From a virus, in IMG/VR virus record IMGVR_UViG_3300028610_001354, positions 1-30,239 of that record: a stretch of DNA of 30,239 nt; one strand, given 5' to 3'. Position numbers and translations under genes: made by a program. The notes beneath the pieces were generated by a model. That model saw only the letters and a list, made by a program, of their open reading frames with translations, ran no database searches and had not been told where the DNA came from. Below are positions 26,669 to 30,239 of the stretch, in pieces. The first letter of the stretch is position 1. Each line of letters starts with the position of its first letter.

Positions 26669-26694
26669 TGTTTGTCTCCGTTAATTGCTTTATG

Positions 26695-26736
26695 TATATA
26701 CTATATATACAATAGATTAACAAAACGTTAACGTAA
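26695..26736 (-). promoter_or_regulatory. Early promoter copy 1 with GTTAACGTAA box
   Basis: On the minus strand the -35 is TTGTTA (26723-26718), with a 17-bp spacer and -10 TATATA (26700-26695). Just upstream is ACGTTAACGT, a perfect 10-bp palindrome (26725-26734). The box and both hexamers match copy 2 at 27323-27364, so both are probably controlled by the same regulator. The adjacent HTH gene is the obvious candidate. Confidence 0.6.
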
Positions 26737-27060
26737 TAATAATAATTCGTTTTCATTTATATAATATTTACTAAGCAGTTTTTCTCTTATGGTTTCTGTA
26801 AGTCTACGCTGATGACAAGCTATAGAGCGCAAGTACACATATGATATACCAAGGCTCTCTGCAAGCTCAGTTCGGTTTATGCCATTCCTATACTGTATTA
26901 TCGTAAATAGTTTTGATAGATTTGTTTGCTTACGTGTCATTTTTTGTAGTTCTTCGTTATATTCTCTTTCGGGGTGGTTTTCAAGCCAGTAATCTAAAGA
27001 ATTTCTTGCAACAAATTGGTGATCCACACAATCATAAATTTTTCTATCTTCGCTAGCCAT
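26728..27060 (-). CDS. HTH regulator of the leftward early operon
   Basis: A 110-aa protein. Residues about 48-95 (LFTIIQYRNGINRTELAESL, GISYVYLRSIACHQRRLTE) form a helix-turn-helix of the XRE/transposase-like type with a short end. AAGGAT precedes the ATG. It lies between the two identical promoter boxes, so it is the likely protein that binds ACGTTAACGT. Binding is inference. The stop lies inside promoter copy 1. Confidence 0.65.
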   Translation of the reverse strand: MASEDRKIYDCVDHQFVARNSLDYWLENHPEREYNEELQKMTRKQTNLSKLFTIIQYRNGINRTELAESLGISYVYLRSIACHQRRLTETIREKLLSKYYINENELLLLR

Positions 27061-27299: not shown

Positions 27300-27322
27300 C
27301 TCAATCTCCTAATTACTTTATG

Positions 27323-27364
27323 TATATATAGTATCTACATAGTATTAACAAAAGGTTAACGTAA
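27323..27364 (-). promoter_or_regulatory. Early promoter copy 2 with GTTAACGTAA box
   Basis: On the minus strand the -35 is TTGTTA (27351-27346), with a 17-bp spacer and -10 TATATA (27328-27323). GTTAACGTAA lies upstream at 27355-27364. The spacing is exactly as in copy 1 at 26695-26736. Confidence 0.65.
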
Positions 27365-27392
27365 CAAACTAACAAAGAATCTTTTACAGTTG

Positions 27393-27538: not shown

Positions 27539-27610
27539 GTGGTCAGCAACCGACTGATTATACTTTCATTCTAAACATAACCCCCTTTGGAAACTTTGGG
27601 GGTTTTTTTA
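27539..27610 (+). ncRNA. Predicted ~72-nt small RNA
   Basis: A strong promoter is followed after about 72 nt by an intrinsic terminator, with no gene between. The 5' part can form a small hairpin (TCAG with CTGA around CAACCGA), then an unstructured A/T/C-rich linker (27557-27578), then the terminator stem. It lies between the two divergent early operons, the place for a copy-number or early-gene regulator. Its target is unknown. The insertion sequence starts right after its U-tract. Confidence 0.6.
27579..27609 (+). terminator. Intrinsic terminator of the small RNA
   Basis: AACCCCC (27579-27585) pairs with GGGGGTT (27598-27604), followed by a run of seven T (27603-27609). The T-run belongs to the insertion target TTTTTTAT. 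Confidence 0.75.
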
Positions 27611-27611
27611 T
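27604..27611. repeat. Target site duplication, left copy
   Basis: TTTTTTAT flanks the element on the left and is repeated exactly at 29940-29947. Eight bases is the usual duplication size for IS1595-type elements. A perfect duplication suggests a recent or at least undisturbed insertion. Confidence 0.9.
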
Positions 27612-27633
27612 CGGATTAATACGCTTTAAGGTT
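27612..27633. repeat. Terminal inverted repeat, left end
   Basis: 22 bp, perfectly complementary to 29918-29939. Bases further in match only partly. It is the transposase-distal end. Confidence 0.95.
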
Positions 27634-27708
27634 ACACACTTTATTAACACCATCAAAATATCTAATAAAATCTTAACTTTTATCATTTATATTTAAGTAT
27701 ACGAGTTT

Positions 27709-27845
27709 TAACAGGCTCACACGTAGAGATCGCTATTTAATTATGGCGGGAGCAGGCTAATACAATACTTACTTCGGTAAGGAATAAGCCTACCCTCTTT
27801 CTACGTGTAGGGCTGTTAATCTCCCGCTTCCTTAATTAATTAAAT
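27709..27845 (+). ncRNA. Pseudoknotted structured RNA inside the IS
   Basis: Two long helices interlock. Helix A pairs TAACAG (27709-27714) and ACACGTAG (27719-27726) with CTACGTGT (27801-27808) and CTGTTA (27813-27818). Helix B pairs ATTTAATTA (27735-27743) and GCGGGAG (27746-27752), which lie inside helix A's loop, with CTCCCGC (27821-27827) and TAATTAAAT (27837-27845). Between them, AGGCT (27754-27758) and AGCCT (27787-27791) enclose CTTAC-TTCG-GTAAG, a C(UUCG)G tetraloop. The tetraloop reads correctly only on +. A local CCCT/AGGG pairing (27793-27812) competes with helix A, so the RNA could switch. No known RNA family comes to mind. Confidence 0.65.
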
Positions 27846-27857
27846 GGCGTAAGATAC

Positions 27858-28004
27858 ATGGATCATCTAACAAAATTGATACTATTCCATACTGGATTAA
27901 CAGAACAAGAATTACAATGTAAGCTATATGGTAAACGTGAATTTACTAAAGAGGAAGTTAAAAGGATTTTAGATTTATTATATTTCTTGCATGGACGTGA
28001 CTAG
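27858..28004 (+). CDS. 48-aa ORF downstream of the structured RNA
   Basis: ATG 27858 begins 13 nt after helix B. The translation (MDHLTKLILFHTGLTEQELQ, then CKLYGKREFTKEEVKRILDL, then LYFLHGRD) shows amphipathic helices like a small regulatory or HTH-type protein. No clear Shine-Dalgarno is seen. It is on the strand opposite to the transposase. It could be a partner of the RNA or of the passenger protein. Confidence 0.45.
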   Translation: MDHLTKLILFHTGLTEQELQCKLYGKREFTKEEVKRILDLLYFLHGRD

Positions 28005-28018
28005 CATGTTGAAAATTA

Positions 28019-28978
28019 TTAGTCGTTTTTGTCAAATAAATTAGAGTTTTGTTTCTCTTGTATTAAATCACCTGTTATTTTTGAGATTATATATTTTTCA
28101 CTACCTGATATTGCTTCTCCGTTATCGTCTTCTTCATACGTGATAACCATTTCTACAGGTAATTTAGAATTATAACGTACTTCTGTCCTTATTTCTTTTA
28201 GCTTCTCTTTAATCTGATCTGAAAATTCTATTTGTTGAGGTTTTATAGTTTTTCCAACATACATAAAAGTCCATTTTTGATCTCCATAATAATCTGCCAT
28301 ACGTATGGTAAGATTAGTTTTTATAGGGTCTTGTTTTGATTCTACAGATTCTAAGTTTAAATCTTGTTTTAGAATTGCTTCTTTATCTTTTTGTGTAATT
28401 ATTGTTCTATTACTATCTTCTTTGGTAGAGTATCCGATTTCTCCTTTAGAGTTAAGATGCTCCCCATATTTTCTTTGGATAGAATACTTTTTTTGCCAGC
28501 TAGCTTTTATCAATTTAAAAAGATTAAATTCTACTTTATACGTATCTTCTTCAATAATTAATTCAACTGTACCATCTTCTAAAATAGTATGTTTCTTTAC
28601 TTTACGCCCTTTCTCAATCATCTTATAGGCAATATATGAAGTGATAGCAACTCCAGCGACTCCACTAACTCCAGTACCAATAAAACCTAATAATTGGAGT
28701 AATTCTTCTATACTCAATGTATCTTTAAGCCCGAAAAGATTTTTTGCTGACTGCAAAGCATTAGCAGACTCCAAAGATACTTTACATTTAAAGCATTTTT
28801 TCTTAAAATCAGCAGTAATAAAAGTTTTTACATCTGCTTTTTTACCATTAATAATCTTATTACTTTCTTCTATCAATTCACCAAAAGCCAATAAAGAAGG
28901 TGCAAATTCTTTAATGTCAATCTTCCCATCCTTATAATTACTACCTTCATAGTATATGTGTAATTCTTGATTCTGCAT
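28019..28978 (-). CDS. IS passenger protein, membrane-anchored, 319 aa
   Basis: It starts 2 nt after the transposase stop, so the two are one transcript. The N-terminal ~70 residues (LHIYYEGSNYKDGKIDIKEF, APSLLAFGELIEESNKIING) form a compact domain that I have seen in uncharacterised proteins but cannot name. Residues about 95-119 (QLLGFIGTGVSGVAGVAITS) are a Gly-rich membrane segment followed by KGRKVKKH. The C-terminal ~100 residues (WTFMYVGKTIKPQQIEFSDQ and LPVEMVITYEEDD) form a beta-rich domain. Domain, membrane helix, domain resembles effector or sensor proteins. No enzymatic motif is visible. Confidence 0.75.
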   Translation of the reverse strand: MQNQELHIYYEGSNYKDGKIDIKEFAPSLLAFGELIEESNKIINGKKADVKTFITADFKKKCFKCKVSLESANALQSAKNLFGLKDTLSIEELLQLLGFIGTGVSGVAGVAITSYIAYKMIEKGRKVKKHTILEDGTVELIIEEDTYKVEFNLFKLIKASWQKKYSIQRKYGEHLNSKGEIGYSTKEDSNRTIITQKDKEAILKQDLNLESVESKQDPIKTNLTIRMADYYGDQKWTFMYVGKTIKPQQIEFSDQIKEKLKEIRTEVRYNSKLPVEMVITYEEDDNGEAISGSEKYIISKITGDLIQEKQNSNLFDKND

Positions 28979-28980
28979 AC

Positions 28981-29856
28981 CTACACCATACGTAATAATA
29001 AGTCGTTAAAAGTATTTTTGTTGTCTCTATTATTGTATCTATAAGTAAATTCGTTTATGTAATTATCTAGGTACTTTTTGCTTACTTTGTGAAAGTTACC
29101 CATGATACCACGCTTTAATAAAGCCCAAAATGATTCAATGGTATTTGTGTGAATATCATAGCTATTAACGTATTCTTTTTGGTGGTTAACTTGTGCATGG
29201 TTAATAATCTTATTCATAGTCATATAGCCTTTATATTCGTCAGTAATAAGTAATGAATTATCCATGTCTATATTATCCCTAACTAATTGCTTAAGTCCAT
29301 ATGACTTAATTTGCGCTTTCTGAACGCTCGTAGCTTTTACCTTACCGCCTCGTTCTACCATACCAACAACACACTCTTTTTTAGTACCACGACCTCTTGG
29401 ATTGCCCTTGTCGTTGTCATCCTTCTTGCCTGTTTTCCTAGGCTTTCCGCCAACATAAGTCTCATCCATTTCTATTATACCACTTAACAATTCTTTGTCA
29501 TTAGTTTTCATAGCCTTACGCACTCTTTGCATAATTGACCATACGGTAGCTTGTCTCATACCTAAGTCTCTTGCTATCTGATAGGACGATGCACCTTTTT
29601 TTGCGTTTAACATTAAGCTCATTATTAAGAACCATTTTTGTAATTCAATATGTGTGTGATGAAAAATAGTACCTACTGTTACACTAAAAGATTTTCTACA
29701 ATCATTACAATGATGTCTTAATTCTTTTTCGTTAGGGTAGGTATTTTCTCCCTTACAATATGCACATTTTACTTCATCACCCCATCTTACTTTTTCAAAG
29801 TGTTTAATACATGCTTCTTGAGTGGGAAACTTCTTTATTAACTCTAGTATATTCAT
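28981..29856 (-). CDS. tnp: IS1595/ISXO2-like DDE transposase
   Basis: A 291-aa transposase. The N-terminal zinc ribbon has C31, C34, C50 and C53. The middle has an HTH-like region (ASSYQIARDLGMRQATVWSI). The catalytic residues are D131 (MDETYVGGK), D206 (LLITDEYKGY) and E241 (NTIESFWALLKRG), the ISXO2-like order. H236 precedes the last block as is usual. The full length agrees with the family, so it is probably active. Confidence 0.93.
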   Translation of the reverse strand: MNILELIKKFPTQEACIKHFEKVRWGDEVKCAYCKGENTYPNEKELRHHCNDCRKSFSVTVGTIFHHTHIELQKWFLIMSLMLNAKKGASSYQIARDLGMRQATVWSIMQRVRKAMKTNDKELLSGIIEMDETYVGGKPRKTGKKDDNDKGNPRGRGTKKECVVGMVERGGKVKATSVQKAQIKSYGLKQLVRDNIDMDNSLLITDEYKGYMTMNKIINHAQVNHQKEYVNSYDIHTNTIESFWALLKRGIMGNFHKVSKKYLDNYINEFTYRYNNRDNKNTFNDLLLRMV

Positions 29857-29917
29857 AACACACAGCCATTTTTTATTACTTAATAGTTATATGTTACTAC
29901 TTGTTTATCTAGTTGTC

Positions 29918-29939
29918 AACCTTAAAGCGTATTAATCCG
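29918..29939. repeat. Terminal inverted repeat, right end
   Basis: Perfect inverse copy of 27612-27633; it is on the transposase-proximal side. The promoter for the transposase would lie between it and 29856. Confidence 0.95.
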
Positions 29940-29947
29940 TTTTTTAT
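29940..29947. repeat. Target site duplication, right copy
   Basis: TTTTTTAT, identical to 27604-27611. Confidence 0.9.
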
Positions 29948-30095: not shown

Positions 30096-30239
30096 ATAAA
30101 AGTTAGTTAATCTAAACAACCCAACATAACCCACCGCTATTTTTGGCTAACCACGTGCTTTAAAAAATAACCATGTCTAAGCCAACTATAACTATAACTA
30201 TAACTATAACTATAACTATAACTATAACTATAACTATAA
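30096..30239. repeat. Terminal direct repeat, right copy
   Basis: Identical to 1-144 over the full length, including nine CTATAA units at 30186-30239. Confidence 0.97.

What the first reader, a model, noticed from the sequence alone, without database searches (positions are those of the whole stretch)
27709..28004. Undescribed-looking pseudoknotted RNA plus 48-aa ORF carried by an IS1595 element
Two perfectly paired long helices interlock in an A-B-A'-B' order, with a nested C(UUCG)G hairpin and a competing local hairpin. Many precise pairings in 137 nt are hard to get by chance in AT-rich DNA. The RNA ends 13 nt before a small ORF, and both are on the strand opposite to the transposase and passenger. 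I know no structured RNA of this type in the IS1595 family; comparison with known IS-linked RNAs (IS200/IS605 type) is only by analogy. It could control transposition, regulate the 48-aa protein, or work with the passenger.
Basis: partly seen in the sequence, partly recalled or inferred. Interest (0 to 1): 0.78.

Follow-up and report, generated by a model that had tools for sequence, protein, structure and literature searches.

The report
Transposon-carried C4-like pseudoknot antisense RNA
A phage-borne transposon carries a small knotted RNA that belongs with a widespread, poorly understood bacterial RNA family and is built like the phage P1 "C4" antisense switch, and the same kind of RNA recurs inside other copies of this transposon family, where it usually sits in front of a carried gene.

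Summary
Two interlocked helices, a UUCG hairpin and a competing local hairpin lie at 27708-27849 (+) inside an intact IS1595 element with 38-nt terminal repeats and a perfect 8-bp target duplication. It is not an unknown fold: it is a divergent relative of Rfam sRNA-Xcc1 (35.8 bits, below the gathering score of 53). A model trained without it gives 42.5 bits, E=8e-7, as the only hit in the window. In 88 relatives the hypervariable P3 loop and linker tend to pair with a strand upstream and often with the start-codon region of the next gene, the a1b1-C4-a2b2 layout of phage P1. In a subtype with the same close-up upstream partner as the window, that helix shows compensatory changes. The RNA recurs at nine or more other alphaproteobacterial IS1595 loci, usually followed by a cargo ORF on the same strand, as ORF48 is here. 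The window lacks a recognisable downstream target, so what it controls is inferred: most likely a C4-like antisense switch in the leader of the cargo gene. Verdict: new variant of a known kind. The C4 logic of sRNA-Xcc1 and its IS1595-borne form were not found in Rfam or in the papers held.

The parts
27604..27611 (.). 8-bp target site duplication, left copy (TTTTTTAT)
   Evidence: identical to 29940-29947
27612..27649 (.). left terminal inverted repeat of the IS1595 element
   Evidence: 38 nt, 82% complementary to 29902-29939
27644..27671 (+). possible sigma-70 promoter TTAACA-16-TAAAAT (weak; AT-rich DNA, below shuffle expectation)
27708..27714 (+). a1: upstream partner strand, pairs with a' 27813-27819
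27719..27729 (+). b1: upstream partner strand, pairs with P3 loop b' 27798-27808
27731..27743 (+). outer part of closing stem P1, 5' strand (pairs with 27837-27849)
27745..27836 (+). sRNA-Xcc1-like RNA core: P1 27745-27752/27821-27828; P2 27754-27758/27787-27791 with UUCG hairpin 27768-27781 and conserved AAUACAAUAC/GGAAUAAG; P3 27793-27796/27809-27812
   Evidence: RF02221 35.8 bits; model R1 42.5 bits, E=8.4e-7
27798..27808 (+). b': P3 loop (antisense segment; hypervariable between relatives)
   Evidence: variability in R2-type relatives
27813..27819 (+). a': linker between P3 and P1 (antisense segment)
27837..27849 (+). outer part of closing stem P1, 3' strand
27858..28004 (+). 48-aa ORF in the cargo position after the RNA; no convincing homologue or family found
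28019..28978 (-). passenger gene, LAPAL family NF053583 / PADLOC PDC-S42 candidate defence / phrog_3243
28981..29856 (-). IS1595-family (ISXO2-like) DDE transposase
   Evidence: PF12762 2.5e-38; NF033547 3e-62
29902..29939 (.). right terminal inverted repeat
29940..29947 (.). 8-bp target site duplication, right copy

Best explanation
27708-27849 (+) encodes a C4-like antisense RNA switch of the sRNA-Xcc1 superfamily, carried as cargo by an IS1595 element. The closing stem P1 holds two arms; the P3 loop (b') and the linker after P3 (a') are the antisense segments. By analogy with phage P1 C4 (C4 blocks the icd/ant ribosome-binding site) and Gifsy-1 IsrK (cis pairing in the isrK-orf45 leader holds orf45-anrP untranslated; IsrK supplied in trans releases it), the RNA most likely sets expression of the ORF that follows in cis and, because the pairing sequence differs from copy to copy, discriminates between self and other copies in trans. 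Shown: family relationship, structure, covariation of helix a in relatives, pairing with the start-codon region in many relatives, recurrence in IS1595 elements. Inferred: transcription, direction of regulation, ORF48 as target (the window has no recognisable a2/b2 downstream pairing).
For: RF02221 match 35.8 bits; model R1 built without the window gives 42.5 bits, E=8.4e-7, its only hit in 30 kb. RF02221 in 61/398 Pseudomonadota genomes, up to 9 copies. Own versus permuted flanks, 88 units: upstream -29.3 vs -24.1 kcal/mol, downstream -23.4 vs -19.7, 0/5000 permutations each; the same 7-mer anti-loop on both sides in 25/88 vs 0.45 (max 3) when swapped. Downstream genes include Bro-N, Phage_pRha, SymE_toxin, HTH_3, N6_N4_Mtase+HNH. 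Same layout annotated in phage P1: a1, b1, C4, a2, b2, icd. Helix a in the window's subtype: 100% of cells paired, 5 of 11 pairs with double changes, covariation 0.299 vs at most 0.107 when slid. Window helix A 0/2000 shuffles. IS1595 recurrence. P3 loop/linker 0.46 bits/column vs 1.5-1.7 in P1 and core, while upstream pairing is kept in 24/28.
Against: The window has no downstream a2/b2: -10.8 kcal/mol, 1367/2000 shuffles as good; no better target elsewhere in the phage. Rfam gathering score is not reached; model R1 does not hit P1 C4, so common descent with C4 is not shown. Model R2, built from the IS1595-borne RNAs, does not hit the window, so it is not the same subfamily. ORF48 has no good homologue and no visible RBS. 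No clear promoter. No expression data.
Confidence: 0.6

Rival explanations
1. Purely cis-acting structured leader: the pseudoknot gates translation or transcription of the cargo gene (attenuator or riboswitch-like), with no antisense action in trans.
For: In R2-type relatives the RNA lies 0-46 nt before most of the ORFs found, several with signal-peptide or lipoprotein-like starts; upstream pairing is kept in 24/28, downstream pairing in only 6/28. In the stand-alone subtype, promoter-like TTGAyy-17/18-TATAAT sequences (read by eye) would place the start near a1.
Against: The pairing segments are hypervariable between copies while the core is conserved, more typical of copy-specific antisense pairing than of a fixed switch. 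Many distal-type relatives place a second partner at the RBS.
Confidence: 0.25
2. Orphan trans-acting sRNA: the RNA has lost its cis target and now acts on antirepressor or toxin mRNAs of other phages or prophages, an immunity-like function for the phage or transposon.
For: No a2/b2 in the window; several relatives are also upstream-only (L154, L155, L158, L166, L167); P1/P7 C4 gives heteroimmunity (PMC12197685); sRNA-Xcc1 was described as a trans-acting sRNA (title of RNA Biol 2011, cited in PMC12444791).
Against: No target could be named; host unknown; the RNA keeps the position right before an ORF.
Confidence: 0.2
3. Regulator of transposition: the RNA controls the transposase or marks element ends.
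For: Recurs at nine further IS1595 loci.
Against: Most relatives were not found next to IS1595 transposases: of 28 R2-type hits examined, 20 had none within 1.5 kb; no convincing complementarity to the transposase transcript; the closest element L005 (68% identical transposase) lacks it.
Confidence: 0.08
4. Chance structure or decayed remnant without function.
For: Missing downstream target, weak ORF48.
Against: Structure statistics; family match; both a1:a' and b1:b' helices intact at full length.
Confidence: 0.07

Closest known systems
sRNA-Xcc1 (Rfam RF02221)
   Same: Closing stem, P2 arm with AAUACAAnAC...GGAAUA, P3, conserved 3' stem; mobile, multi-copy; upstream of small or mobile genes (symE in Xanthomonas integron cassettes, PMC12444791)
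   Different: Score below the gathering threshold; partner strand 26-37 nt upstream instead of about 58-90; AT-rich with an extended outer P1; carried by IS1595. Held literature treats sRNA-Xcc1 as a virulence-linked sRNA, not as C4-like.
C4 antisense RNA of phages P1/P7 (RF01695) with c4-a1b1 (RF03163)
   Same: a1-b1 upstream, hairpin RNA with a' and b' within a closing stem, small ORF (icd) downstream
   Different: No sequence or CM similarity found; window lacks a2b2, a terminator between b1 and the RNA, and an antirepressor gene
Gifsy-1 IsrK-orf45-anrP (RF01394)
   Same: Leader strand pairs in cis with the downstream RNA segment; a 45-aa ORF is involved; the two structures exclude each other (PMC4825925)
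   Different: orf45 overlaps the paired segment and is coupled to an antirepressor gene; ORF48 is not
IS200/IS605 omegaRNA / IS110 bridge RNA
   Same: Structured RNA inside a transposable element
   Different: No TnpB/IscB/IS110 recombinase; the variable loop pairs with the RNA's own leader

Membership tests
sRNA-Xcc1 (RF02221) | Score at or above the curated gathering threshold (53 bits) | tested here: not met
   35.8 bits; no gathering-level match
sRNA-Xcc1-like superfamily (model R1, window excluded from training) | Significant CM score over the full model | tested here: met
   42.5 bits, positions 1-85, E=8.4e-7 over 30 kb, sole hit
sRNA-Xcc1-like superfamily | Upstream partner strand complementary to P3 loop and linker | tested here: met
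   -26.7 kcal/mol, 0/2000 shuffles; same order of segments as relatives
C4 antisense RNA (RF01695) | Match to the C4 covariance model | tested here: not met
   No C4 match at E<=10, whereas P1 gives 68.8 bits
C4 antisense RNA (RF01695) | a2/b2 target site around the downstream ribosome-binding site | tested here: not met
   (1367/2000 shuffles as good)
C4 antisense RNA (RF01695) | a1/b1 target upstream of the RNA | tested here: met
   layout compared with P1 annotation
IS1595-borne RNA subfamily (model R2) | Match to model R2 built from seven IS1595-borne RNAs | tested here: not met
   Window absent from hits at E<=1; kinship runs through R1 and shared layout only
IS1595 family element | DDE_Tnp_IS1595 transposase, terminal inverted repeats, 8-bp target duplication | tested here: met
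IS200/IS605 omegaRNA | Adjacent tnpB/iscB whose 3' part overlaps the RNA | tested here: not met
   No such gene found; element proteins are the IS1595 transposase and a LAPAL/PDC-S42 protein

The most novel reading that the evidence does not exclude
A recurrent class of IS1595-family transposons carries a copy-specific pseudoknot antisense RNA as a standard module in front of its cargo gene, so that a transposon controls, and tells apart, its own cargo with a self-complementary RNA barcode. The same module, as the widespread sRNA-Xcc1 superfamily, is a general C4-type switch for mobile genes far beyond phage P1.
Probability: 0.35. Interest if true: 0.8.

Novelty: new variant of a known kind. 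Interest (0 to 1): 0.62.

Why it matters
sRNA-Xcc1 is a common Rfam family with no settled mechanism. The paired flanks found here (upstream a1b1, downstream a2b2 at the start codon of BRO, Rha, SymE and methyltransferase genes) give it a directly testable one, that of C4. The window shows that the module travels inside IS1595 transposons, including phage-borne ones, in front of cargo genes, a type of cargo control I did not find described for this transposon family. Copy-specific loops would explain how many copies can live in one genome without cross-talk.

Tried and rejected
(1) DNA similarity of the RNA/ORF48 region in plasmids and phages: only AT-rich chance matches. (2) ORF48 relatives: L006 is a chance match inside a phage protein; one weak hit in 385 genomes, inside a 555-aa frame. 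(3) Exact-pattern scan of viral contigs for the RNA core: none. (4) Trans targets in the phage: nothing stands out except the upstream a1b1. (5) attC-like reading of TTAACAG...CTGTTAA: considered because sRNA-Xcc1 occurs in integrons, dropped because the arms belong to a1:a' pairing shared with relatives outside integrons. (6) Same RNA in the closest element L005, in L007/L008 or in L010/L011: absent. (7) IS1595 in the family of multi-copy genome G481: none, but only 4 genomes were held, so this says little. (8) A tRNA/tmRNA, riboswitch or known ribozyme at this place was not found. (9) MAFFT alignment of the window with the stand-alone subtype misplaced the helices; covariation was counted only within the close subgroup (A5), without the window and without the b helix, whose columns were misaligned in A5.

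Full report
What is there. The window is a 30,239-nt viral record with phage terminase and other phage genes. At its right end lies an IS1595 element: terminal inverted repeats 27612-27649 and 29902-29939, an ISXO2-like transposase, and a perfect 8-bp duplication TTTTTTAT on both sides, which is T-rich but full length. Inside it, besides the transposase and a passenger on the minus strand, lies the finding on the plus strand.

The structure is real. Interlocked helix pairs of this strength did not occur in 300 shuffles; the nested fold has z = -4.5. The pairing of the upstream strand with the P3 loop and linker is -26.7 kcal/mol against -12.3+-2.6 in 2000 shuffles.

What family. A plain Rfam scan found nothing at gathering level, but a permissive scan of the stretch gave sRNA-Xcc1 (RF02221), 35.8 bits, E=1e-4 for 421 bases, over the full model. 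RF02221 itself is common: 61 of 398 Pseudomonadota genomes, often several copies. A model (R1) built from 22 of these, without the window, and with covarying stems, finds the window RNA as its only hit in 30 kb: 42.5 bits, E=8.4e-7. The RNA is therefore a divergent relative; by the curated threshold it is not a formal member.

How the family is built. Reading the flanks of 88 such RNAs showed that the P3 loop and the linker after P3 are complementary both to a strand upstream and, in many, to the sequence just before the next start codon. The effect is strong against swapped flanks (0/5000 permutations on either side; the same 7-mer on both sides in 25/88 against a mean of 0.45). Against dinucleotide shuffles of each unit's own flank, 37/87 (upstream) and 33/87 (downstream) reach the 5% level. 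Genes downstream include Bro-N, Rha, SymE, HTH and DNA methyltransferase/HNH proteins. This is the arrangement annotated in phage P1: a1, b1, C4, a2, b2, icd, ant. C4 blocks translation at the icd/ant ribosome-binding site (PMC8198154, PMC12197685). In Gifsy-1, pairing of the isrK leader with the following orf45 RNA holds translation off, and IsrK in trans releases it (PMC4825925). No covariance similarity between sRNA-Xcc1 and P1 C4 was found, so the likeness is one of design. A search for papers naming both found one, which lists both RNAs; the passages read did not link them.

The window's subtype. In most relatives the upstream partner lies 58-90 nt before the RNA. In the window it lies 26-37 nt before. 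A group of alphaproteobacterial loci (L154-L162, L165-L169) has exactly this close arrangement, with duplexes of -31 to -44 kcal/mol. On an alignment of ten of them the a1:a' helix is paired in 100% of cells, 5 of 11 pairs show changes on both sides, and the covariation score of the structure is 0.299 against at most 0.107 for slid partners. Some of this group also keep a downstream partner (L157 before a methyltransferase gene, L161, L162, L168/L169), others, like the window, do not. The window itself was not part of that alignment because automatic alignment misplaced its helices.

The IS1595 link. Transposase relatives occur in 47 of 385 alphaproteobacterial genomes. R1 found the RNA next to two of them, and four weaker hits carry the same kind of upstream partner: L239, L250 and L251 in the first test, L247 once its full length was taken. 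L212 repeats the window's order: terminal repeats 2949-2982/4628-4661, RNA on the plus strand near the transposase-distal end, cargo ORF on the plus strand, transposase on the minus strand. 8-bp duplications are visible by eye in L213 (ATTCGTTG), L250 (AATATTGA) and, with one-base uncertainty at the element ends, L212 (AACGCGAT). For L247 no terminal repeat was found and for L239 none is convincing. A descriptor scan added L249. A second model (R2) from seven of these gives nine distinct IS1595 loci in six genomes. In 16 genomes R2 found 33 places; of 28 examined, 8 have an IS1595 transposase within 1.5 kb, 24 keep the upstream pairing and 6 the downstream one, and many precede secreted or lipoprotein-like ORFs. 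The loop/linker region is hypervariable (0.46 bits per column) against 1.5-1.7 for the closing stem and 1.4-1.7 for the core. Scored against RF02221 these RNAs reach at most 31.5 bits, so Rfam does not report them. R2 does not recognise the window: the window shares the layout and the R1 family, not the R2 subfamily.

Mechanism. Conserved core, hypervariable pairing segments and retained self-complementarity speak for copy-specific antisense pairing, as between P1 and P7 C4. The best explanation is a C4-like switch in the leader of the cargo gene. For the window itself, the target is not shown: ORF48 is in the right place, 21 nt after the matched RNA, but no a2/b2 pairing is found, no Shine-Dalgarno is visible, and an ORF of this length arises in about 5% of shuffles. 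A purely cis-acting leader and an orphan trans-acting RNA remain open.

Limits.

Noticed in passing
window 28019-28978 (-): The passenger is a PADLOC PDC-S42 candidate defence protein / NCBIfam 'LAPAL' protein (1e-32, 5e-25). A LAPAL-like ORF (by eye, C-terminal similarity) also sits next to the same terminal-repeat sequence in two other phage contigs.
   Followed up: partly
L007 1019-1956 and L008 880-1817: A LAPAL-like ORF ends just before the same IS1595-type terminal repeat, with no transposase visible nearby and a short duplicated phage sequence on both sides: possibly a non-autonomous cargo element.
   Followed up: no
L005 4870-8210: IS1595 element in another phage contig with a 68% identical transposase and a type I restriction-like DNA methyltransferase as passenger (by eye), no C4-like RNA.
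   Followed up: no
window 30184-30239: The contig ends in a pure TATAAC hexamer array.
   Followed up: no
window 26682-26739 and 27310-27367: 58-nt direct repeat (81%) upstream of two small minus-strand phage genes, probably a shared operator/promoter; parts are also inverted repeats of each other.
   Followed up: no
L103, L134-L142, L170-L181: One 1.4-Mb alphaproteobacterial genome (G481) holds 13 sRNA-Xcc1-like RNAs, many in front of short, mutually similar ORFs of about 85-120 aa.
   Followed up: partly
L109, L143-L148: Another small genome (G658) has 11 copies, some followed by related 44-46-aa ORFs similar in size to ORF48.
   Followed up: no
L021 2890-2958: A c4-2 RNA match (34.8 bits, below threshold) lies in the same locus as an sRNA-Xcc1 RNA; Rfam puts C4 and c4-2 in one clan but sRNA-Xcc1 in none.
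   Followed up: no
L264, L280, L282, L286, L288, L290: R2-type RNAs directly precede ORFs with lipoprotein-like starts, most with poly-glycine after the cysteine (...AACGGGGGG...), suggesting a family of RNA-led surface protein genes.
   Followed up: no
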